Positions 701 through 12,304 of a stretch of DNA of 64,000 nt are shown piece after piece. The notes below the pieces were generated by a model that ran no database searches, had not been told where the DNA came from, and saw only the letters and a list, made by a program, of their open reading frames with translations. The DNA is from Bryopsis sp. KO-2023. Taxonomy: Eukaryota > Chlorophyta > Ulvophyceae > Bryopsidales > Bryopsidaceae. The DNA lies in the NCBI GenBank assembly GCA_030272585.1, contig BSYQ01000008.1, positions 496,001-560,000 of the forward strand, read 5' to 3'. Each line of letters starts with the position of its first letter. Positions within the stretch are counted from its first letter, which is position 1. Position numbers and translations under genes: made by a program.

Positions 701-3589
701 GTTGTTTGAAGGTAAGAGGGTGTTCTCGAGGGAAGCATCGGGTGGGGTGGAGTTTTTCTTGTATTCCCTGGGATTTGGTGGTGTTGGTGCGCCCAGTTGC
801 ATGTTGGCATAGATTCTGAAGGTCTTGTTTTGGGCGGGGGGTTTTCTGTCAGAAGACGTCCGTGTTGATTGGAACAACTTTTTATCAGCTAGGTTTGATA
901 CTATGAAGAATCACTTGTCATACTTGTCTTTTCTTGTTTGTTTTTGGCCAACATATCCCAGGATTTTCGCCATTTTAATGGCTACACAACAGCGCCCCCC
1001 CCCAAAAAAAAAATCTTGTCGATTTAGTAGCAAATGAAGACAGACCCCCCCCACCGCGATCGTCATCCACTCCAAAATAGCTTGGAGAATCTCCTTTTTG
1101 ACATCCCCTCGTTATGCCCGTATAATGAAACATTAGCGACCTGTATCTTGGTCCTTTTTTTATCTTTGCAAGTTTTAAAACGTTTGGCATGCCCAGTGGA
1201 AGGGGCCCCCTCTCCCCTCTCCCCCTAATTACTTTTTTGAGTAATTGCTTTTTTGGGTTATAAAGCGTTCCCAGCATCAATTCTACAGTGCCAATTCTTC
1301 TGTGTGTTGTTCTTGCAGGGATCGATTACCAAAAGGGTTATGCAAACATCTGTAGAATAACGAAGTCCCCCTCATGCGCCAAGAAAAACAAGGGGGGGTT
1401 GCAACATGGTTGATTATAGGGGGTTCTTTGGCAGACTGCCTTTCTTTTCCAGGTTGACCGTTCGCTGTTCGGGCTCTATGTATGTGGTTGGTATTAACAA
1501 AAGAAGAAAAGCGCTTTTGCCTTATGCTTGACTTTTGAGTTGGAAAAAAGAAAGCCAAAAGAAAGAATCAATTCATTGCAGAGATTGAGCGAACTTTCCT
1601 GGACAGGAGGGGGGGGGGGGGGATATCAAAAAACCTGCTGATAATCAAATCAAGCAGGGGGGGGTCTGGAAGAAATAGGTTCGGGGGGTGGGGGGACTAG
1701 TGAGAAATTTTGGCAGGGTTTTGGAACGAGCCTCGGTCAAAATATGGGTGATTGGAAAAGAAGAGGAAATCCGGCGGGCGGGCGGGGGGGGGGGGGTTGA
1801 AAAAGAAAAAACCGAGGTAAACAAGAAGAGAGAGAGAGATATTTGCAAAGAAAAAGGAGCGAGTTTTGTACGTATGTGTGAAATGCAGTGGAGGGGAATT
1901 TTTCAACGCTCAAAAGCTTCAAAAAGAAAAAAAAATGTGGTGGTGGTTTTTTGGGGTGAGATGGGTTAGAGGGTTGGTTTTTTTGTTGTTCGCAGACAGC
2001 TGTGGGCTGTGAAATTCTCTTCTTTTTGTTCAGTTGTTTCCTCGCTTTCTCTGTGTTTCCCTTCGTAGATGACCCATGTATATGAAAAAAAAAATGAATT
2101 ACATATTATGTGTGTTAATACAATCTGGGCGAAAACCCAAAGGGCTTTATTGTGATCGGAAAAGAAGAGGCTCGTTAGAAAAAAAAAGCGGTGTAGGTGT
2201 TCCAGCGACTGTTGGCGAGTCAAAGCAGATTTTTTTTTCTGTCTGTGTGGCAGACATATTGCTTGGTAACTGCACACAAGAAAAATCAACAGGCATGCGT
2301 GTGAAAAAAAAGAAAAAGACTGATGGTTGCAGTTTGGGGGAAAATTTTGGGAGGAAGGGGTTGGTAGGGGAAAAAAAAAGGGTTACATGGGGTTGGATGG
2401 GGTGGGCGGAATTTTGGGGGCTCTGGGGCAGGTGGGAAAAAAGAGATAGGGGGGGGGGGGATTGTGTGCTGTTTGTACTACTATTTGGATACGTCACGTT
2501 TGATCTCAGTCGGTCGATTTGTGACCAAAATGAATCATGAGTCAGTCTAGTGACTTAAAATGGCACAACATCTGTACACAAACGTTGTGCGAGTCAGTCA
2601 GGGGCTGTTGTGTTACTCTCTTAACTCCGCTCATCTTATCCCACGCTTCACTGACGTCTCTCGTCAGTCGACACTGTGTGTGATTGTTTTCCGTTACGGA
2701 CGTCCACTCGACGCCGTTTCACTCTTCAACGGTTGGAACACCTCTCGAGTACAAGCTTTGTTCTAGTGACTCGCTGTAAATGTGTTCGTTTACATGGGTT
2801 GTGTTCTGCCTTTTTAAACACCAGGAGTTTCTGGCGCGCGACCCTTCGTCGTCCCCGCCAAAAACGCCAACTGAAACTGCAGGTGAAACGGCACGGTTTA
2901 CAGTCATAGCCGCCGTACCGCTTCGAGCTTACTGTCACGTGATATGTCCCATGTCCCAATTTGTTCGTTCTATTCCCCACCGCCCCTTAATAACGTTCAT
3001 TTTCCCCATCCATCTCAGTTCATTCATCTTTTTCACAACAGGGGCCGAGAAAGTGAGTCACCAGCAGTCGATTCTGGATTTGCAATGGCTGGCTAGCATG
3101 GGGTGAAAGGTGTTCCCCACAAACACAGGTTACACACTCAAATGTTCCCGAAATCCACAATCAGTGGTTCAAACCCGAAATCAACCATTCTCGAGGAAAT
3201 CGGACAAAAAACTTAGCCACTTGGCCACTTGGCCGTGAAAACAAAGAGACAGATGCATCCAGAATCGTTTAACCAACCAAACCCATGCGAAAATACCAGC
3301 AATGTTAAGAAGTCGAGATAAGATCATTTGATCAGGAAATTCCCAGTGGGAAGGTGGACAGAAAGATAGGTTCTTCCCAGAGTGCACACTCGTTTTCCGA
3401 TCTTTTCCCATTCTCTCCCAGATCTAAACCATCTGCACTGCTACAATTTATAATTTACCCCCCCGTCTCACAATGGAAAAGAATTGCAACTATATTGTGG
3501 CGAATTTGATTTGTTTTAGTTGCGTTTTCCTCCCTGCAGCTGCAGTATGCCAACAAAAGTATGTGGGCTCAACATCAACTTCGTTTGAG
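701..3589. other. spacer with G-rich homopolymer runs; no gene seen
   Basis: About 2.9 kb between the hnRNP-like gene and the F-box/LRR gene, covering two 3' UTRs (the genes are convergent). The + strand between about 1600 and 2460 carries runs of 9 to 13 G (for example 1610-1622, near 1780-1794 and 2449-2460) and A runs. A CpG-richer stretch at 2520-3000 contains an E-box-like TCACGTGA near 2935. Open frames here are short, of biased composition and unlike any family I know. I see no convincing exon. Confidence 0.5.
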
Positions 3590-6500
3590 TCAAATAAACA
3601 GCCTGCACCCTTTCCCCCTGTCCCTCAAAGTCCGCCAAAAACTACCCAAGTTAAAACCTGCCGCAATTGACAGACACCGAGCGTCCAGGACATCCCTTTT
3701 GTCATCGCGTATCTCGTCCCAGCCAAATTTTACACAAATCAACTCAGGGAGCAACGCAATGGCGTCCAAACTCTTGGTGAACTTCAGCGGATTGCTGCAC
3801 AACTTGATCGTTGTCAGTCGTGCCATTCTTCCAATGGCCGCTGGAACTTCCTGGAGGTCATTGTAGCTGAGGTCCAGCAGTTTCAACCCGATGGCCCCAC
3901 TCGGTTGCGGCAAGTCTCTGAGACTGCCATGGTTGAGAATCAACTCCTCGAGATGTGGCAGTTCGAACATTTCCGAGGGCGCTATTTCGAAGGTGCAGTT
4001 TTCAAGGTGCAATTTCTGCAGAGCGCCAACGTGAGAAGCAACGAAGTTGAACGCCTCTGGGATTCTGAGGGAGTGGATTGAGACTTTCAGACGCCTTAGA
4101 CTCGGAATGTTTTGGAAAACATGTGTCCCAGAGAGAACTTCGGGAATCTCCATCATAGGGGTGGAGGAGTTGATCGCCAGCGTTTCCAGTCCAGCCATAA
4201 CAGCGACGGAGGGCAGCAAAGCTCCATTCCATCGAGAATACGACAGTGTGAGGTCTTTCAGACCAGATATTTGCACCAGTTCTTTGGGCAGAATGTCTAC
4301 GTTTTCCAACGCGAGACGTCTGATGGTCGTCGGGAGCCAGATCAAGTGCAAGATTTTGTGTGTCGACGAGCACCTTCGCAACGTCACTTTCGTTAGCTTG
4401 GTCAAGTTCACCATCCCTCTTGCATTGTTGAAGAACGCAACGTGGCCCCAAACACACAGCTCCTGAAGGCTGCTGAGATTTTCGATGGCGCGGAGCGCAT
4501 TTCCCATGAAGTTTCGATGGAAGCATTTGATCAAGCGCAGCACTATAGGAAATCGCGCTCTGTGCGGGGTGTTTTACTGACCCCGCATAGAAGCCTAAAA
4601 CCCGTGTTTAGCCACGCACAGAGCCACAATAGCCCCGCACGGCTCTGTGCCCGGGTTTGGCCGGTCTGTGTGCGGGGTCCCAATTTCACCCCGCACAGAC
4701 TGGAACCCCGCACACAGGACCTGACGTCTTTCCCGTTGTGGGACCCCGCACAGATGAAACATAGCCCCGTACAGTGTGCGGGGTACCCTATCCTCCGTAC
4801 GGGGGTGCCGTGCGGGGTGGATATGGAAGACGTCAGGTTCTGTGTGCGGGGTTCCCGTCTGTGCGGGGTGAAATTGGGACCCCGCACACAGACCGGCCAA
4901 ACCCGGGCACAGAGCCGTGCGGGGCTATTCTGTCCCTGTGCGTGGGTGTTCAGGGTGCTGTGCGATTCTGGAACCACCCCGCACGAAAGAGTCATACCCT
5001 CGTACAGCTGTGCGGGGTCTCTGTGCGGGGTGGCTGTGAAAACCTTGTGCGGGCTCCTCTTGTCTGTGTGCGGGGTGATTGTTGAAGGCGTGTGCCAGCG
5101 TATTCCGCCCCCGTGCGGGGTCCTTATCTGTGTGTGCGGGGTGGTTGGTGAAGGCGTGTGCCGGTGTATTTCGTCCCTGTGCGGGGTCGCTGTGCGGGGT
5201 TATGTTGTGTGCATGCTGTGTGATTGTAGAAACATCTGTGTTGTGGTTGTTACAATAAAACTACGATGACAAGACCCCCTTTGAATGTAGACCCCATTTT
5301 TTTTTATCAAAGACTTGCCCATTCCCACTTATTCCAAAAAAGAAATAGAAACAAAAAAAAAGGCCCAAAACCATGAACTCCAATCCTACCATTCCGACCC
5401 TGCGCTTGTCTTTCAATAAAACAGACCCACTGACCCACTTCCAACTGTTCTATCATATGCATATGAATCCGGGTTCACTGAGGCTGGAAAAGTCTTAATA
5501 AAGTCAGTTTCCTGAATCAAAACCAAAGTGATGGGTCTGGGTGTTGCTGTTTTTTGCGTGTTTTTTTTTCAGTCTTCGATATTTTCGCTATATTTTCCCT
5601 AGCTGGTCAGGCCTAGCGGAGAGGGCGACCAACGCATCCACAGCAGCAGTGCTCGCACCGTACCTAAATTGCATCGTTGTTTTTGTAATTTCCTTTTTTT
5701 TTAATGATTTGAGACAACTTCTGTAAATAAAATATGATGTCATCTTTTTCTTATCTAGAAAATGAAAAACAGCTTCTAATATTCAAAAATAACGTTTTTG
5801 TTTCTCTTCCCTTTAAAAAACAAAAGGAAATTATATTCTCAAGCACATTTGAAAAAAAAGGGGGCAACCAAAAAAAAGAAAAGTTCATCAAAAGCAATTT
5901 TATTTTTGGAGGAAAAAAAATCAACACAGTCCTGCTACCCCTTTTTCTTTTATTATTCTTTCATTTTTTCTTTTTTTTCAAGGTGACACTCACCAGGAAG
6001 AGTCAGGCATGTTGTCATTCAGGATGACTGACAGCAGCGCCCCAATGACTGACTTGAATGAAGATGGCTTCGATGAATCGATGATTATCTCTTTCAACAA
6101 TGTGCATGCATACTCCAATGCAACTACATCCACATCATCCACATGGAAAATCTATATATTTTCAACATGAAAAAAATAAATAAAAACAAAACCATTCAAC
6201 CATTCATTGTTAAAACACAACCAGCCAATCAACCACAAACTTTAAAAATTCAGATTTCCCAAATCAAATGTAACGATTGTTTTTATTAGACATCCTTACA
6301 AATATTTACTTATTTCTTCTGTATATATATATACTACCTTAATTTATTTCCATACCACTTTTTAAAAAAATAAAAAATAGTACCTGTGTTTAATAACAAA
6401 AAGTTACCTGGATGATTGCATCCACATGTCCGACCAGCATGGGCCTCCACTGATCGATTCCCATAGTAAGTATTTGAATGGCACCCCTTGCCTAAGCAAT

Positions 6501-9500
6501 AACAGAAAATTAAGGGTTTTCAACAATTTTTTTTCATTTTTTTTTCCTTTCAACTCTTTCTTTCGTCTATGAATTTCAGACTGAATTCACTTCAATACTT
6601 TGAATTTACAATCGTTCCACTTTAAAACTCTTGAGTATTTTTTTTTAATTTTTTTTATATATTTCAATACACTTATGATGCAATCTTTTTAACATACCCA
6701 GATTTTGTTTGGAGCTCAAAGAAAAATGCAGAAAAATGAAAAGTGAAGTTTCGACCCTTTCCCCCTCCCCTTGTTCTTTTATTTCCTTTTTCTCTTTTTT
6801 TTTCTTTTTTTACAAGAATGAAATCGCTATGGAAAAAAAAAGAAAATTAAATCGCTTCCGAGAAAAAGAATAGATTTTTTTTTTCATACCTGAGTGTGTC
6901 AATGACATGTGGTGGTGATTTTGCCTCACAGCTGATTTGTTTTGCCAGACATCCAGGGGATGTGCCTGTTGCATATGCATTTTTATCAATAATCTACCTC
7001 AATTTCCAACTAGGATGTTGAGAATGAGGATGTTTGTGTGTGTTTTTTCCAGGTGGAAATAAAAATAAATAAATAAATAAACAGCAAAATTATGAATTTA
7101 AAAACAAAAATTTACTGGAAAGGTCTTAATTCTCCAAAAAAAAAAGGAAAAGAAAGACAAGTCGAACTCGACTAAAATACACGAGTGGCCGAATTCCCAT
7201 TTTTTTTCAAGTATATATAAAGAAATTCATCAAGGTTTTTATTACTAGATTTTTTTTTTTCGACCCTTTTCGAATCCTCACCCTTTTGCTCTCCACCAAA
7301 CGCGTCTTTGGCGAGAGGGGACAATTTCTTTTCGCGTCGTTTTTAACCTCTCTATATCTGTTCGATATGAGGATCAGGGACATCGCGACGCTGTCTGGCA
7401 GACACCCACTTTTGCACAGATGTTTGACCATCTCTTCCAAAGACACCATTTCCTCCACAGTCACACCCACCGTCAGTCCGATCAAATTGTTTGCTGTCAC
7501 CAGGGGATCTCCTGATGTTCCTGTTGGATTTTCAGAATCCTCATCTGACCAAGGTCATTAAAAAAATAAAGAAATGAGAAAATGAGAAAAAAAAACACTG
7601 ATTGTGTTTGTTTTTTTTGTTTTTTTTTTTTAAACACTAGTTCTGAAGCCATTTTTGTTTTTGAATCTGATTTTTTTTGGTTTATTTTTTGCAACTCATT
7701 AACAGAAAAAAAAAATTAAAAAATTTTGTTTCACATAAATTCTTCGAGGCTTTTTTTTCTTTTTTCTTGAATTCAAAATGAGATTAAAACCCTTTTCCAT
7801 GCAAAGTTTGAAAAACTCACTCTTCTTAATTTTATTTTTTTCAATTAAAGTGTTATATTATTTCGCACTCACCAGGACTGTCGATGTGAATGTCTCTGAA
7901 AGCGTCAATGACTTTTGACTGAATGGATTTATCCATGCTGAATATCAAAGTCAACATTGTTCTGACCGCATCATCCAGCCCTTCGATTTCGAACTACGAA
8001 AAAAAAAGGAAAAAAAAAATAAGACAGAAAAAAAAAGCCAATGCAATACGTATGTTTCTATAAAATTCTGTTTTCACTTTCTTTGCCCAGATTTCAAAAA
8101 TGGGTTGTCTTTTTCTTTCAGCAGCGTGATGGCAGCTTTCTGAATGAAGGCCGCCTTGTCTGACAGGTGTCGATAGCCCGCTTCTGCCAGCGGAACGTAG
8201 TGGTCTATCGGAATCACTTTGCTTTGCACCAGCATCGTCCACACTCCAAAAGTCCGAGCCCTGTGTGAAGGGTTTCATGTTCATCCGTTAGCATGGTGCT
8301 TTCAAATCTTTTCGGGTGCGGGGAAAAAAAAAAAAAAAAAGCTAAAAAAGCAAACACAAAAAAAACACGAAAAAAAACAAAAAAACTGAACCAAGAAAAA
8401 CAGGAAAAAAAAATATACACAAACAAACAAAATGAAAGTAAACACAAAATGAACCAAAAAAAAGCAGAAAAAAAAACAATTTATAAACCCCCCAAAAAAT
8501 GAAAAAAAGAGAAATAAACCGAAAAAAAAACAAACAAACAAAATGAAATAGAATAGAATGCTGCACGAGCGAACCCCCCTACCTCGTGTATGGGCGGACA
8601 TCCAGGAACCTGTCCATCAGTCCCTAGCGCCCTGTTCTGAAACCTCAAGCTCCGCTCAACATCCACCACCCCCTTTTCTGAACACCCCATGAGCCTGCTT
8701 TCGTTAAACACCACATGGCCCAGCGCCGAAACAAGAGAACTCCTGATCGTGTGGACCGAACACTCCCAACAAGGCGTCCCAAGCTTCGGGACACATGTAG
8801 TCGAGGTACGATAAACTTGACGAAGGGGGAAAACACCTGCGGAGCGTTTGTGCGGTTTACTAAAGCGGGGTTGGTTTCTGTAAAGCTATTTTGGGATGTG
8901 GCTGCCCCGATGTCCGACGAGTAGCGGTGGTGGCAGTAGCGGACATGGCGTTCTTAACTGGGGGGTGGACCAGCACGCAGGTGATAGGGGAGTAGCGATT
9001 ATGGGAGTAGCGATTATGGGGCGACACCCTCTGTGCGGGGTTGACTGTGCGGGGTTGTGTTCTGTGCGGGGCTGACTGTGCGGGGTTGATTTCAGCGGTT
9101 TCATCCGTCGCTGACGACTTCGTCAGCGACGGCGTTTTCCGGCCCCAGATCGTCACAGGAATGCCTGGGAGTCGAACCCAGGTATTTCCGACCATTTCCT
9201 TTCACTGCCGCGTCGGTTTTCGCGACTTCGATTTTCGGCGGAAGTCGACGGTGATTTTACTACCCCGCACAGAGCGGGTTTTCCCATAGTGCAGAATGCG
9301 GAGGTTGCGGCCAAAAAGGGAGAGCACCCCAACGTTGAAAGCGCTGATATCAAGACCGCCCCAAGTTGTGTGCCCAGACAACGCCACTCCTTCCAGCTGA
9401 TCAGCGTGCTTTGCCCACCTACCAACAAGCCACAGTCAATACTATCGGTGTGGTTTGGTGCTGCTGGGTTTTGCGATCATCATAGCGCTCCCCCACCATA

Positions 9501-9810
9501 AGTTGCTCATCTGCTTGGGCCAGCCCCAGCAGCAAATCCTCACATATCTCAACAACTGCGGGGTGCCATTTATGATCTCTCTCCACCGCCGACACACGAG
9601 GGGTATTGTGGTCAAATGTTCGAATCCCACCACTCGCTGCTCATGGTCATTCCCCTCATCCGACTTGCACTCCACCTCGAAGGTAGAGGTGAAAGGTTGA
9701 ACAACACTGGTAAAAATCTTGCTCAGAATATTATCGTCCAAGTCATCGATTGTACACCAGCCCTGTCTTGCGACAAGAGCATCGCAACTCTGTTCTATTT
9801 CTTCCACCAT
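3590..9810 (-). CDS. F-box and leucine-rich-repeat protein
   Basis: Model of 473 aa in three exons: 9810-9497, 9418-9264 and 4542-3590. Splice phases agree (2/1, then 1/2) and the total length is divisible by three. Exon 1 carries an F-box near residues 20-80, with DDLDDNILSKIF followed, after a charged insert, by IPLVCRRWREIINGTPQLLR. Exon 3 is a run of leucine-rich repeats, for example LSSLQEL, LPHLEELILNHGSL and LKLLDLSYNDLQEVP. F-box proteins of this type recruit substrates to SCF (Skp1-cullin) ubiquitin ligases, with the LRRs as the substrate-binding part. The start is the first ATG of the F-box frame; a further 5' exon is possible. The second intron is 4.7 kb against about 80 bp for the first. 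It is filled by an apparent mobile element holding a condensin gene fragment. If that intron is not spliced as modelled, the F-box and LRR exons belong to two genes. Confidence 0.7.
4540..4570 (+). repeat. left inverted terminal repeat
   Basis: 31 bp beginning GCACTATAGGAAA and ending CGCTCTGTGCGGGGT. The last 15 bases match the right copy perfectly in inverted orientation, and 28 of all 31 positions match. Read on the minus strand, its CTATAG forms the 3' splice site used by the last exon of the F-box/LRR model. Confidence 0.7.
4631..4926. repeat. foldback with ~102-bp near-identical inverted arms
   Basis: The left arm (4631-4733) and right arm (4825-4926) are near-perfect reverse complements around a ~90-bp spacer. 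Each arm contains CCCGGGTTTGGCC and several copies of the ACCCCGCACA/TGTGCGGGGT motif. The spacer carries further copies, including GTGCGGGGTACC and CCGTACGGGGGTG. The arms would form a long hairpin as single strand or RNA. The 275-codon open frame across this region is a by-product of the GC-rich repeats. Confidence 0.85.
4934..5250 (+). repeat. array of irregularly spaced GTGCGGGGT motifs
   Basis: To the right of the foldback the motif GTGCGGGGT recurs on the + strand at irregular spacing (for example near 5010, 5020, 5069, 5113, 5134 and 5181). The stretches between are related, such as GTGAAGGCGTGTGCC at two places. It reads as a decayed tandem array of a ~30-60 bp unit, part of the subterminal repeat region of the candidate element. 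Confidence 0.65.
5588..8850 (-). pseudogene. condensin complex subunit 1 (NCAPD2/CND1-like) gene fragment
   Basis: Intron-containing exons on the minus strand encode the middle part of condensin subunit D2, a HEAT-repeat protein of the chromosome-compacting condensin I complex. The exons are approximately 8847-8668, 8623-8583, 8260-8078, 7993-7873, 7520-7246, 6965-6890, 6486-6408, ~6098-5994 and 5663-5588. Diagnostic stretches in order are HTIRSSLVSALGHVV, LMDRFLDVRPYTR, LSDKAAFIQKAAITLL followed by NPF, VRTMLTLIFSMDKS, NLIGLTVGVT, GAIQILTMGIDQWRP and AAVDALVALSARPDQL. The N-terminal third and the C-terminal half are absent: upstream lies the repeat-rich element end, and downstream the frame stops after GKI (TAG at 5590-5588). 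A one-base frame change lies near 8755, inside the first exon. Several splice junctions still agree in phase (8583/8260, 7873/7520, 5994/5663), so this is copied genomic DNA, not cDNA. One junction (8078/7993) does not. Confidence 0.75.
9031..9086 (+). repeat. subterminal CTGTGCGGGG cluster, right side
   Basis: Four copies of (C)TGTGCGGGG(T/C)TG in 56 bp. They match the motif that fills the left end of the candidate element at 4556-5200. Just upstream, GGGAGTAGCGATTAT is repeated in tandem at about 8990-9020. Confidence 0.7.
9105..9132. other. perfect 12-13 bp stem hairpin
   Basis: CCGTCGCTGACGA is followed almost at once by its exact reverse complement, giving a very stable stem with a tiny loop. 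It sits inside the right end of the candidate element, next to the CTGTGCGGGG cluster. It could act as structured RNA or as an element-end structure; no function can be read from sequence alone. Confidence 0.7.
9164..9182 (-). other. tRNA T-arm / B-box-like sequence
   Basis: The minus strand reads CCTGGGTTCGACTCCCAGG, which is a canonical T-arm and matches the RNA polymerase III B-box consensus GGTTCGANTCC. I could not build an acceptor stem, D-arm or anticodon arm around it, so it is not called a tRNA gene. It may be a remnant of a tRNA gene or of a tRNA-derived SINE inside the candidate element. Confidence 0.45.
9262..9292 (-). repeat. right inverted terminal repeat
   Basis: Inverted partner of 4540-4570. 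On the minus strand it reads GCACTATGGGAAA and ends CGCTCTGTGCGGGGT. It overlaps the 3' end of exon 2 of the F-box/LRR model, and its terminal GT serves as that intron's 5' splice site. Confidence 0.7.
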
Positions 9811-12304
9811 CTCTTCCGAAGTCGATAGTTGGCACCATACAAATCAGCAAGTTGCACTTGGCCAAGACCAAGGTCCATGGACCACGTCTCTCCCCGTTCC
9901 TTAACAGTTTTCTGTTCTAGCGAAAGAACCCAACCAAAAGTTTCTCCTGGCTTATTATCGTTCTGATTCACATCGTGGGAAGGAATTGGTAGACTGTGTT
10001 TTTGTGGCCATGGGCTATTGAACGGCCGCCAGTCTTGAAGTTCCAGCCACGCCGAGAAGAAGGTGTGCAACGGATCTTTAATTTTGATTCAAATTCGCTT
10101 AGAAGCCACAACTTGGTTTTTTTTGTGGAAATCAGGCTGGTCATGAAACTGGACCAAAAAAGATACAATTGATTCCAGAATTTTCGTCTGACCATGGTCA
10201 GGAAGTCAAGTCAGTCAAAAGCAAGTCAAACAAAGGTCCCAACTTGGGAAAGGTAAACTCCTTTGGCGAAAGCAGTCGTTCTTTTCTTTTTTCTGTGGGA
10301 TCCCAGGGTGGACCATCCCTTTCAGTTTTATGATTGAAACAAGGGGATCCCATATTTCGATAGAAACTGATCCTTCCTTCTCAAAGTGGAGGCTGCAATA
10401 GATGACTTTTTCAACTCGGACGTTGACTCATTCGTATGTCAAAAGTCACAGATGGGAGGCCGATCGGCCTCAACAAAGGAACAGGATCCTGTAGAACACT
10501 TGACCATCTTTTGTTTGTTTGTTTTTTTAATTGATATTTTCTCTTGTTAAAAACAACTGCTAATGAGGTGTACTTTGTTGGCAACAATTGGCATTGACTT
10601 CTGATGAGAAACTAGAACGACTGTGGTTTGATCGATTGATTGGTCGGTTTAATAGCCTTTGGAAGTAGCAGCTTCTGAAAAAATCCTTAAAAAAAACAAC
10701 CCCAAAAAAACTGGCAGTTGGCTTGGCTGAGATGTAAGGGTTGTTGAAAAGGAACGATCATCCTTCAACATGATATGAAGCTGACCGGTCTAGACCGAAA
10801 TTAAATTAAATTCAGATCTGAATCACCCAGAATGGGTGTGCACGAATATCACAGGAACAGCACATTGAATTGAATTATATTGTAATCCTCCAGAAAAGAT
10901 GTTCTGGAGCAGTAGTTTTTGCGCCCATTCTGGCAGAAACAAAACAAACAGATTCCTAATATTCCTAAGAAACAAAAAAGATTGTCTGCCATTTTTTTTT
11001 GTGCCACAAAAAGGGCCAATACATTTTTTTAATAAGAAAGTTTTTGGGGTACATTCACCTGAAGTTTGGTAGCTTTTGTCACAACATAAAAGTTTCTAAG
11101 AAAGGGGAAGGGATGCAGATGTGAAAGGCACATCCAGCAGGCCGTGTGATTTCCATTCACGCAGCACTTGACCTGTGAACCCCCTCAAAATTTTGTTGAC
11201 GAGATGAAAGAAACAACTCTAGGCTTAGAAACCTTTTGTAAGTTTGCTGGGGAATAGCCTTGGAGAAGTTGGGGCCAGCGAAACTGAAAAAAGACGCTGT
11301 TCTGGAGTCATTGACCCTCTGCTCCACCCCCTTCAATGATTTTCCTTTTTTATATATATTTTTACGGTGGCATTTCTGACATCACCTAGCTGTGGACACG
11401 GTTTGATTTTTTTTTTTTTTTTTTATGAATGTACCTCAGATTTATTTTTAAAAACAGATATATATCTGTATATATACGCACACAGATTGGCATCCAGTCT
11501 TCTCTGACCCTCTATTCACTTCTGTTGAATTCACATTCTTACAGTAAAAAGTACGATCCCTGTTCCAGCCCCAGTCCCTTCAAATACCACAACCCAGAGT
11601 CCTAACTGTACAAATTGCACACCAACTACCCAACTGAATTAGCCCTTTCCACACTTCTAAAAATTGGTTTGAAAACTTTGCAAACAGCCAAATTCACTTT
11701 GTTTTCGCCAATGAACACAAAATAATGATGATTGAAACTGCACAAAGAAAAAACAGAAATCCATATTAAAAAAAAATCAGAAGGAAATAATTATATCATG
11801 GTGTGATTGTCATCTGGAACGATTCAGCTGGTACGAAAGGATTTGCAAGGAAACGGAACAGTGATGGGATGGTTTCTGTTCAAAGAAGTAACGGCAGAAA
11901 CATGCGTTCCGCGTTTTCTGTCGGGGGAGTGAACGAAGCGGCGTCCTGATTGCTTGTCGACAACTCGAAGGCATCGTCAGAGGAAGAACGTTTGAGAATG
12001 TGAGCGGCGTTTTTATTTGAGCGTCGGAGCGCGCATGGTGGTTGGAGGTGTCGTTTCTCTGGATGTGTGGTTACAGACCCACTCTCCACAAAACAGATCT
12101 TTTGCTCGCCTGGCGTTCTCGAACAAAACTGGTCGGAACTGAAAGCGACTGTTGTTCTGGCGGAGTTTCTGTCGTTTCCTGGAGGATGTTGCAATCTTTA
12201 CAGTTGGTGTTCACGAAGCTAGCTTTCGTGGCCCGTCGAACTTGCGCGCGTCAAAGCGTCTTGAGCGACTAAGACGTGGTTCTGCTCTGTCAAGATTGTT
12301 CGGG
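9811..12304. other. intergenic region between F-box/LRR and carbonyl reductase genes
   Basis: The two genes diverge, so both promoters should lie here. From 10200 to 11850 there are no long open frames and the composition is AT-rich, with short A/T runs and a 19-T tract near 11410. The last 400 bp before 12305 is richer in CpG and fits a promoter/5' UTR. A minus-strand open frame at 12194-11880 is Ser/Thr-rich and could be a stray exon, but no splice or family evidence supports it. Confidence 0.45.

What the first reader, a model, noticed from the sequence alone, without database searches (positions are those of the whole stretch)
4540..9292. TIR-bounded element carrying a piece of a condensin gene inside an F-box/LRR gene intron
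A 4.75 kb segment with inverted 31-bp ends (28/31 matching), GTGCGGGG clusters at both ends and a large foldback contains intron-bearing exons from only the middle of condensin D2, on the same strand as the host gene. A complete functional gene on the same strand inside an intron would be very unusual. A captured gene fragment in a non-autonomous DNA element explains the truncation at both ends and the repeats. Such Pack-type elements are known from plants (Pack-MULEs); this family, defined by CTGTGCGGGGT subterminal repeats, is not one I recognise.
Basis: partly seen in the sequence, partly recalled or inferred. Interest (0 to 1): 0.88.

Follow-up and report, generated by a model that had tools for sequence, protein, structure and literature searches.

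The report
Gene-carrying CACTA transposon in green alga
A 4.75 kb jumping DNA element in the nuclear genome of the seaweed Bryopsis carries a broken piece of a chromosome-condensing gene and has landed inside an exon of a leucine-rich-repeat gene; it belongs to a family of such gene-carrying elements that looks recently active, together with full-length relatives that encode the likely transposase.

Summary
Real. The element is window 4541-9291 (4751 bp): ends 5'-CACTAT..ATAGTG-3', 3-bp target duplication CAG/CAG, subterminal TGTGCGGGG repeats, a foldback, and a condensin-D2 (NCAPD2) segment with introns. The genome (91 Mb, 28 contigs) is Bryopsis sp. KO-2023, inferred from homologue names and a matching contig length. 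It holds 74 left-type and 74 right-type ends that pair into 65 elements; 23 of the 24 read in full have 3-bp target duplications. At least 13 paired elements carry the condensin piece, 6 a dynein heavy-chain piece, 12 a SWIM zinc-finger piece. A 12.9 kb relative encodes a hand-modelled, intact 13-exon, 1010-aa candidate transposase and a divergent second gene. So this is a Pack-CACTA: non-autonomous, presumably moved in trans, recent (five copies 99.7% alike). One surprise: the cargo differs from the C8 NCAPD2 gene mainly at silent sites (dN/dS 0.13) but from two end-less relics mainly at replacement sites. It seems to come from a working NCAPD2 copy not found in this assembly: lost paralogue or foreign gene. 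I found no green-algal Pack-CACTA report.

The parts
4538..4540 (.). target site duplication, left copy (CAG)
   Evidence: 23 of 24 elements read in full have a 3-bp duplication
4541..9291 (+). the element (4751 bp), L end at 4541, R end at 9291
   Evidence: full-length copies L031, L033, L035, L045, L047
4541..4570 (+). L-type terminal inverted repeat, CACTATAGGAAATCGCG...
4541..5518 (+). left arm with subterminal TGTGCGGGG repeats; about its first 885 bases are shared, in whole or part, with elements carrying other cargo
4612..4945 (.). foldback: 119-nt arms 4612-4730 / 4827-4945, 96% complementary
   Evidence: a self-inverted match is also in the left arm of L058 and L059
5519..8778 (-). 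condensin D2 (NCAPD2)-derived segment with introns, matching L055 sense 2039-7317 in blocks
8116..8262 (-). condensin exon piece, cut at its 3' side by the internal deletion at about 8115
7859..7993 (-). condensin exon piece
7345..7545 (-). condensin exon piece
6399..6494 (-). condensin exon piece (ARGAIQILTMGIDQW...)
5993..6151 (-). condensin exon piece
8779..9030 (.). segment not matched in the NCAPD2 locus L055; part of it is shared with the end-less relics L057 and (80 bases) L056
9031..9291 (.). right arm: TGTGCGGGG cluster and R-type terminal inverted repeat (CACTATGGGAAAACCCG read inward)
9292..9294 (.). target site duplication, right copy (CAG)
3590..4540 (-). host LRR exon, part downstream of the insertion
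9295..9435 (-). host LRR exon, part upstream of the insertion (same frame)
9445..9843 (-). weak F-box-like part of the host gene; two in-frame stops separate it from the LRR frame (short intron or decay)

Best explanation
The feature is a Pack-CACTA element: a non-autonomous DNA transposon with CACTA-type ends, subterminal repeats and a captured middle fragment of an NCAPD2 gene, without a transposase gene. Shown: ends, target duplications, many copies, different cargo in sister elements, a full-length sister with two intact gene models, and insertion into an LRR exon. Inferred: the 1010-aa protein of the full-length elements is the transposase, binds ends and TGTGCGGGG repeats (perhaps with the 478-aa second protein), cuts the short elements out and pastes them with a 3-bp stagger. 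Also inferred: the insertion inactivates the host LRR gene, and the condensin fragment is a passenger. The cargo most likely derives from a working NCAPD2 copy about 15% diverged at silent sites, not found in this assembly; it has decayed neutrally since and spread recently by transposition.
For: Ends: 111 exact matches to one end pattern genome-wide, 0 in the reversed-pattern control; 74 R and 74 L ends (controls 1 each), 65 inward L/R pairs of 3.06-57.8 kb, 18 ends unpaired. TSD: 23 of 24 elements read in full (of 65) share 3 bp; 1 of 24 would also fit a 4-bp duplication. Cargo: element-type condensin in 14 loci, 13 inside paired ends; dynein heavy chain D4 (AAA_8 E 1.5e-12) in 6 paired elements with a 366-bp, 97.8% identical donor on C1; SWIM zinc finger (E 5.6e-6) in 12 paired elements and no other locus listed. 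Recent: five condensin copies 99.66-99.81% alike, dynein pair 99.92%, L032/L041 99.98% (gaps left out). Full-length: 12,897-bp L059/L060 with hand-modelled 13-exon 1010-aa and 8-exon 478-aa genes, all introns GT..AG, no internal stops; L034, L043 and L046 are internal deletions of it; the second half of the transposase core query is >=94% identical in 16 loci, 14 within paired ends. Exon insertion. Origin: 21 silent, 10 replacement changes (dN/dS 0.13) against the C8 NCAPD2 gene, but 1:9 and 0:7 silent:replacement against relics L056/L057.
Against: The transposase has no Pfam transposase hit (its 14 hits lie on the glutamate run or are weak) and only Bryopsis homologues among the 7994 candidates scored; its assignment rests on location, motif order and a weak alignment (hhalign probability 2.4%, E 0.019, 1 of 30 shuffles as good). 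The H(3-4)H pattern occurs twice, so it is not very specific. L040 has no 3-bp duplication, and 18 ends are unpaired. No RNA or excision data. Splicing out is not fully excluded (1 of 550 GT/AG pairs fits frame and loose consensus). The origin inference uses 642 nt against the gene and about 300 and 210 nt against the relics; the relics against the gene give 9:7 and 6:5 (dN/dS 0.24, 0.25). The list was full (80 of 80), though a close working copy should have ranked high.
Confidence: 0.92

Rival explanations
1. A functional condensin gene sits as a nested gene in an intron of the LRR gene.
For: Exon pieces are mostly open and silent changes dominate against the C8 NCAPD2 gene.
Against: Only a middle part of the protein is present; a 1448-bp stretch of the gene, with what looks like an exon and a splice donor, is missing; the same fragment lies in 13 paired elements; against relics the changes are mostly replacements; the target is an exon.
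Confidence: 0.02
2. The element behaves as an intron (introner-like): it is spliced out, so the LRR gene still works. This could be true besides the best explanation.
For: One GT/AG pair keeps the LRR frame with a GTRNG donor and pyrimidine-rich acceptor.
Against: No GT at the donor edge or AG at the acceptor edge of the element; only 23 of 550 GT/AG pairs near the ends keep the LRR frame; read-through stops 29 codons into the element.
Confidence: 0.08
3. The elements belong to another superfamily (MULE-like or a new one) whose ends happen to begin with CACTA; the SWIM gene is part of its transposase.
For: SWIM zinc fingers are typical of MULE-type transposases (recalled); the SWIM frame was found only in elements; the 1010-aa protein hits no Pfam transposase.
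Against: 3-bp duplications and 5'-CAC..GTG-3' ends are what PMC12730594 calls consistent with EnSpm; the 1010-aa protein has D, C(2)C, H(3)H, E in the order that paper gives for that clade; no transposase-core match lies within any of the 12 SWIM elements.
Confidence: 0.07
4. The condensin cargo arrived between the arms by segmental duplication or repair, not by a transposition-linked capture.
For: Two relics, L056 and L057, carry the same fragment without ends or motif.
Against: Different genes occupy the space between related arms in sister elements. The relics show deletions different from the element's, so they look like siblings, not parents. How the fragment first came between the arms remains open.
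Confidence: 0.15

Closest known systems
Pack-CACTA elements of Arabidopsis and other flowering plants (Catoni et al. 2019, not held; described in PMC8903248 and PMC13317346, passages seen)
   Same: CACTA-end non-autonomous elements with captured chromosomal DNA
   Different: Host is a siphonous green alga; here one capture makes a multi-copy family with intron-bearing cargo from a gene copy not found in the assembly; the partner transposase is beyond Pfam's reach
En/Spm and dSpm of maize (recalled); general CACTA anatomy from PMC8978399 (passages)
   Same: Full-length two-gene element plus internally deleted derivatives; subterminal repeats; 3-bp duplications
   Different: The two genes here are divergently transcribed, and 22 of the 25 TGCGGGG motifs in the modelled second gene lie in introns
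Pack-MULEs of plants (recalled)
   Same: Host gene fragments between transposon arms
   Different: Target duplication is 3 bp, not the longer MULE one (recalled); ends are CACTA
Pack-TIRs of animals (PMC8277862, passages) and gene-carrying giant elements of the brown alga Ectocarpus (PMC12477816, passages)
   Same: TIR elements with non-transposase cargo outside land plants
   Different: The animal cases are described as mostly single-copy; the Ectocarpus families carry genes without transposase homology, called analogous to Pack-MULEs, and the passages seen name no host-gene donor

Membership tests
CACTA / EnSpm | termini 5'-CACTA..TAGTG-3' | tested here: met
   window 4541 CACTAT, 9291 ATAGTG; 74 + 74 ends genome-wide
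CACTA / EnSpm | 3-bp target site duplication | tested here: met
   23 of 24 elements read in full; 1 of 24 would fit 4 bp
CACTA / EnSpm | closely spaced direct and inverted subterminal repeats | tested here: met
   23 motif copies on both strands against 0.56 expected; foldback
CACTA / EnSpm | transposase with DDE and C(2)C, H(3-4)H between second D and last E (PMC12730594, passages) | tested here: inconclusive
   motif order present: D470, C489-C492, H670-H674 (also H690-H694), E762; catalytic residues assigned by eye
CACTA / EnSpm | similarity to Pfam Transposase_21 | tested here: inconclusive
   no such hit at E<=1 for the spliced protein; weak hhalign match to the genome's one Transposase_21 locus, 1 of 30 shuffles as good
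CACTA / EnSpm | second gene of unknown function in the full-length element | tested here: met
   8-exon 478-aa model, no Pfam hit at E<=1
Pack-CACTA | non-autonomous: no transposase inside | tested here: met
   no transposase-core match within C8:500541-505291; frames listed
Pack-CACTA | carries host (non-transposon) gene DNA with a donor elsewhere | tested here: met
   NCAPD2 locus L055, with the reservation that the direct donor is a diverged copy not found; dynein donor 97.8%
Pack-CACTA | mobilised in trans by the CACTA transposase | not testable with these tools
   inferred from near-identical copies at different duplicated target sites
Pack-MULE | long (about 8-11 bp, recalled) target duplication | tested here: not met
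   duplication is 3 bp
Introner-like element | splice sites at the element edges (recalled) | tested here: not met
   no GT/AG at either edge

The most novel reading that the evidence does not exclude
The condensin-bearing element was loaded in another lineage and came into Bryopsis sp. KO-2023 by horizontal transfer or introgression. The cargo's 15% silent divergence with strong constraint would be the divergence between two species' working NCAPD2 genes, followed by neutral decay and a recent burst of copies. It would be a gene-fragment shuttle between species, in a green alga.
Probability: 0.2. Interest if true: 0.78.

Novelty: new member of a known kind. Interest (0 to 1): 0.55.

Why it matters
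It extends gene-capturing CACTA elements to a siphonous green alga, with both halves of the system in one assembled genome: short loaded elements and full-length elements with intact gene models. The copies look young enough for the family to be active, so transposition, gene capture and exon insertion could be watched in a cultivated coenocytic macroalga. The silent-site pattern makes the origin of a captured gene testable: lost paralogue or foreign source. It also warns annotators: fragments of condensin and dynein in this genome are transposon cargo, and pieces of the candidate transposase are deposited as hypothetical proteins (BSKO_13183, BSKO_08195).

Tried and rejected
Transposase_21 as a direct route to the autonomous copy: two matches at one locus on C12, part of it with stops inside, and no family ends or motif in the stretches fetched around it. 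The SWIM frame as the family's transposase: no fuller gene seen upstream in the 7.5 kb copy L058, which is a SWIM element with a retroelement piece in it. Size as a sign of gene content: the 13.7 kb copy L053/L054 is large because an LTR retroelement with reverse transcriptase, integrase and chromodomain sits in it. Pfam scans of six frames with X at stops found nothing in the stretches of L034 and L039 given (of L039 500-5102 of 9274 bases) and in L059 only hits below the cut-offs. A homologue search with pieces of the C12 locus gave nothing among 3615 candidates, and one with the joined host protein nothing at E<=1e-20 among the 7999 candidates scored. Host paralogues for an empty site: best other match 29% identity, so none usable. 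A PDB search with 602 residues of the transposase gave nothing at E<=5. Frames of L055 outside the captured part, chosen by eye as condensin exons, gave no PDB match at E<=1, and Pfam only a sub-threshold Cnd1_N match (E 0.019); the gene's continuation rests on the Cnd1 domain next to it. A first splice test of the host included an upstream in-frame stop and so returned zero; it was repeated without that stretch. Literature: 8 searches.
Full report
What was checked. All of that is there. The inverted ends are 31 nt, 28/31 complementary; the motif occurs 23 times with at most one mismatch, all in the element, against 0.56 expected; the foldback arms are 119 nt at 96%.

Which genome. A search with the transposase found two deposited proteins, both from Bryopsis sp. 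KO-2023, one on a contig of 6,213,746 bases, the length of contig C7 here. A paper on its bacteria maps reads to that alga's assembly GCA_030272585.1 (passages seen). The name is thus inferred, not given.

The family. One pattern for the ends gave 111 exact matches in the 91-Mb genome and none for the reversed control. The two ends differ and give the element a polarity: 74 R ends and 74 L ends, with one match in the control of each. Taking neighbouring inward ends of opposite type less than 60 kb apart gives 65 elements of 3.06 to 57.8 kb and leaves 18 single ends; the longest pairs may be partly chance or nesting. I could read 24 of the 65 in full. Of these, 23 have a 3-bp target duplication, 1 would also fit 4 bp, and no target triplet occurs more than twice; the exception is L040. 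Subterminal repeats, two genes and 3-bp duplications are the anatomy given for CACTA elements in PMC8978399 (passages); CAC..GTG ends and 3-bp duplications are what PMC12730594 calls consistent with EnSpm (passages).

Cargo. Five of the 20 elements are full-length copies of the window element; the other 15 share its arms but not its whole interior. The element-type condensin piece is in 14 loci, 13 of them inside paired ends; three further loci are the gene on C8 and relics on C17 and C9 (the list was full at 80 matches). One class carries a dynein heavy-chain piece (Pfam AAA_8, E 1.5e-12) in 6 paired elements, with a 366-bp, 97.8% identical stretch on C1. Another carries a SWIM zinc-finger frame in 12 paired elements; the search lists no locus outside them. 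The copies are young: five condensin copies 99.66-99.81% alike, the dynein pair 99.92%, L032/L041 99.98%, gaps left out. Copy L033 (98.4-98.6%) differs mainly in its first 500 bp and near its other end, as if ends had been exchanged with another subfamily.

The partner. A 12,897-bp element on C4 (L059/L060; one on C11 has the same length) contains what the 5 kb elements L034, L043 and L046 have lost by internal deletion; the main shared blocks are 99.4-100% identical, the first 0.7 kb of L046 95.0%. With splice sites chosen by hand, it encodes a 13-exon, 1010-aa protein without internal stops and with all 12 introns GT..AG; the two deposited Bryopsis proteins follow most of the later exons independently. 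The protein has CCPAC near its N terminus, a glutamate run, D470, CPDC at 489-492, HSCLH at 670-674 (a second H(3)H at 690-694) and E762; [quoted passage not shown] Pfam finds no transposase: its 14 listed families lie on the glutamate run or are weak. The best alignment to the genome's one Transposase_21 locus joins VTGD..NAC..C in both, but at probability 2.4%, E 0.019, reached by 1 of 30 shuffles. Only Bryopsis proteins scored among the 7994 candidates of the homologue search. So the enzyme is assigned by position, motif order and family logic, not by proven homology. A second gene of 8 exons and 478 aa, also hand-modelled, runs the other way from the same middle region; 22 of the 25 TGCGGGG motifs in its exons and introns are in introns; Pfam has no match. 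The second half of the transposase-core query is at least 94% identical in 16 loci, 14 inside paired elements; more distant families stand at 76%, 54% and about 46%.

Where it landed. Joining the flanks with one CAG gives one frame of 363 codons across the site, so the insertion is in an LRR exon. Read-through from the host meets a stop 29 codons into the element. No splice sites lie at the edges; of 550 GT/AG pairs near the ends, 23 keep the LRR frame and 1 also meets a loose consensus. Across the 24 sites read, 7 have a frame across the junction longer than 95% of 200 base shuffles, so exons seem to be hit often. The host has no close paralogue (next match 29%), and two in-frame stops lie between its weak F-box part and the LRR frame, so it may have an intron there or was already decaying.

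Where the cargo came from. A fuller NCAPD2 gene is on C8 (L055). It has matching exon frames, keeps 1448 bp that the element lacks (with what looks like an exon), and has no ends or motif. A Cnd1 domain, the condensin C-terminal part, lies just beyond the fetched stretch on the same strand, C8:3155263-3155532 (E 7.9e-8, over the cut-off). Tests of frames picked by eye elsewhere in L055 were negative or sub-threshold. The captured 3.26 kb keeps introns, so it was taken as DNA. Against this gene four exon pieces (642 nt) differ by 21 silent and 10 replacement changes (dS 0.156, dN/dS 0.13), while the rest is 83-86% identical. Two relics without ends, L056 and L057, are 93.5-94% like the cargo in one block and about 82% in another, gappy one, and have other deletions. 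Against them the cargo shows 1 silent to 9, and 0 to 7, replacement changes; the relics against the gene show 9 to 7 and 6 to 5. The simplest reading: a working NCAPD2 copy, silently diverged from the C8 gene, gave rise to a dead chimeric fragment, of which the relics and the cargo are descendants. The numbers are small and not independent. No such working copy is in the list. It may be a lost paralogue, or a gene of another lineage. The relic L057 shares the segment next to the condensin part up to the base where the right-arm motif cluster begins, which marks the place where the transposon arm was joined, or lost.

How it likely works. Shown: the parts, the copies, the duplications, the exon insertion. 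Inferred: the full-length elements supply the transposase; it acts on CACTA ends and repeat arms; short elements are cut and pasted; cargo rides along. The capture step is not seen. PMC13317346 and PMC8903248 (passages) describe tandem insertion and aberrant excision for Pack-CACTA; a pair of elements 254 bp apart on C7 has the geometry, nothing more.

Novelty. 18 papers hold 'Pack-CACTA', 17 listed, none on green algae by title; the one on a diatom has it only in its references. 'alga' does not occur in PMC8903248 or PMC13317346. Searches on Bryopsis with transposable elements (10 papers) or nuclear genome, CACTA with gene fragment and green alga, Pack-MULE with alga, captured gene fragments with Chlamydomonas, EnSpm with Chlamydomonas and giant CACTA in red algae show no such report by title and start of abstract; the Ectocarpus paper (passages) mentions gene-carrying non-autonomous families in a brown alga. 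The library lacks most subscription papers, and the Bryopsis genome paper (Plant J. 2024, seen only as a reference) was not read. I therefore call it a new member of a known kind, in a new host group.

Changes made on checking. The SWIM count of identical copies, the block identities of L043/L046, the 4-bp wording, the caps, the hhalign probability and the relic-to-gene counts were corrected or added; some searches were run for the NCAPD2 gene, the retroelement and the diatom paper. Confidence went from 0.93 to 0.92, the transfer reading from 0.22 to 0.20 and the non-capture rival from 0.10 to 0.15, because of the full list and the small counts.

Noticed in passing
L059 element coordinates 9183-11877: The second gene of the full-length element has introns filled with the same TGCGGGG motif as the element's arms (22 of 25 in introns).
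   Followed up: partly
C7:2446995-2450351 and C7:2450606-2464728: Two elements of the family in the same orientation only 254 bp apart, the geometry needed for capture by joint excision.
   Followed up: no
L033: One condensin copy has a diverged left end over about 500 bp, suggesting end exchange between elements.
   Followed up: partly
C4:2725058, C2:6495918, C2:7681026, C8:245124 and others: Further loci with related transposase cores at 46-76% identity, several with long open frames, not linked to these ends here.
   Followed up: no
L053/L054: An LTR retroelement with reverse transcriptase, integrase and chromodomain is nested in a family member.
   Followed up: partly
SWIM elements, e.g. 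C5:1971015-1971671: SWIM zinc-finger frame scoring as identical over all 219 residues in 9 of 12 elements, with no copy listed outside elements; its donor is unknown.
   Followed up: partly
L049 about element 1712-4847: The dynein elements match only 366 bp of the dynein locus fetched, in about 3 kb of interior; the rest is of unidentified origin.
   Followed up: no
C12:548569-549374: The only locus over the Transposase_21 cut-off in the genome search, apparently degenerate and without these ends.
   Followed up: partly
C1:7959439-7960501: A second Cnd1-domain gene (four exon matches), perhaps the other condensin HEAT subunit.
   Followed up: no
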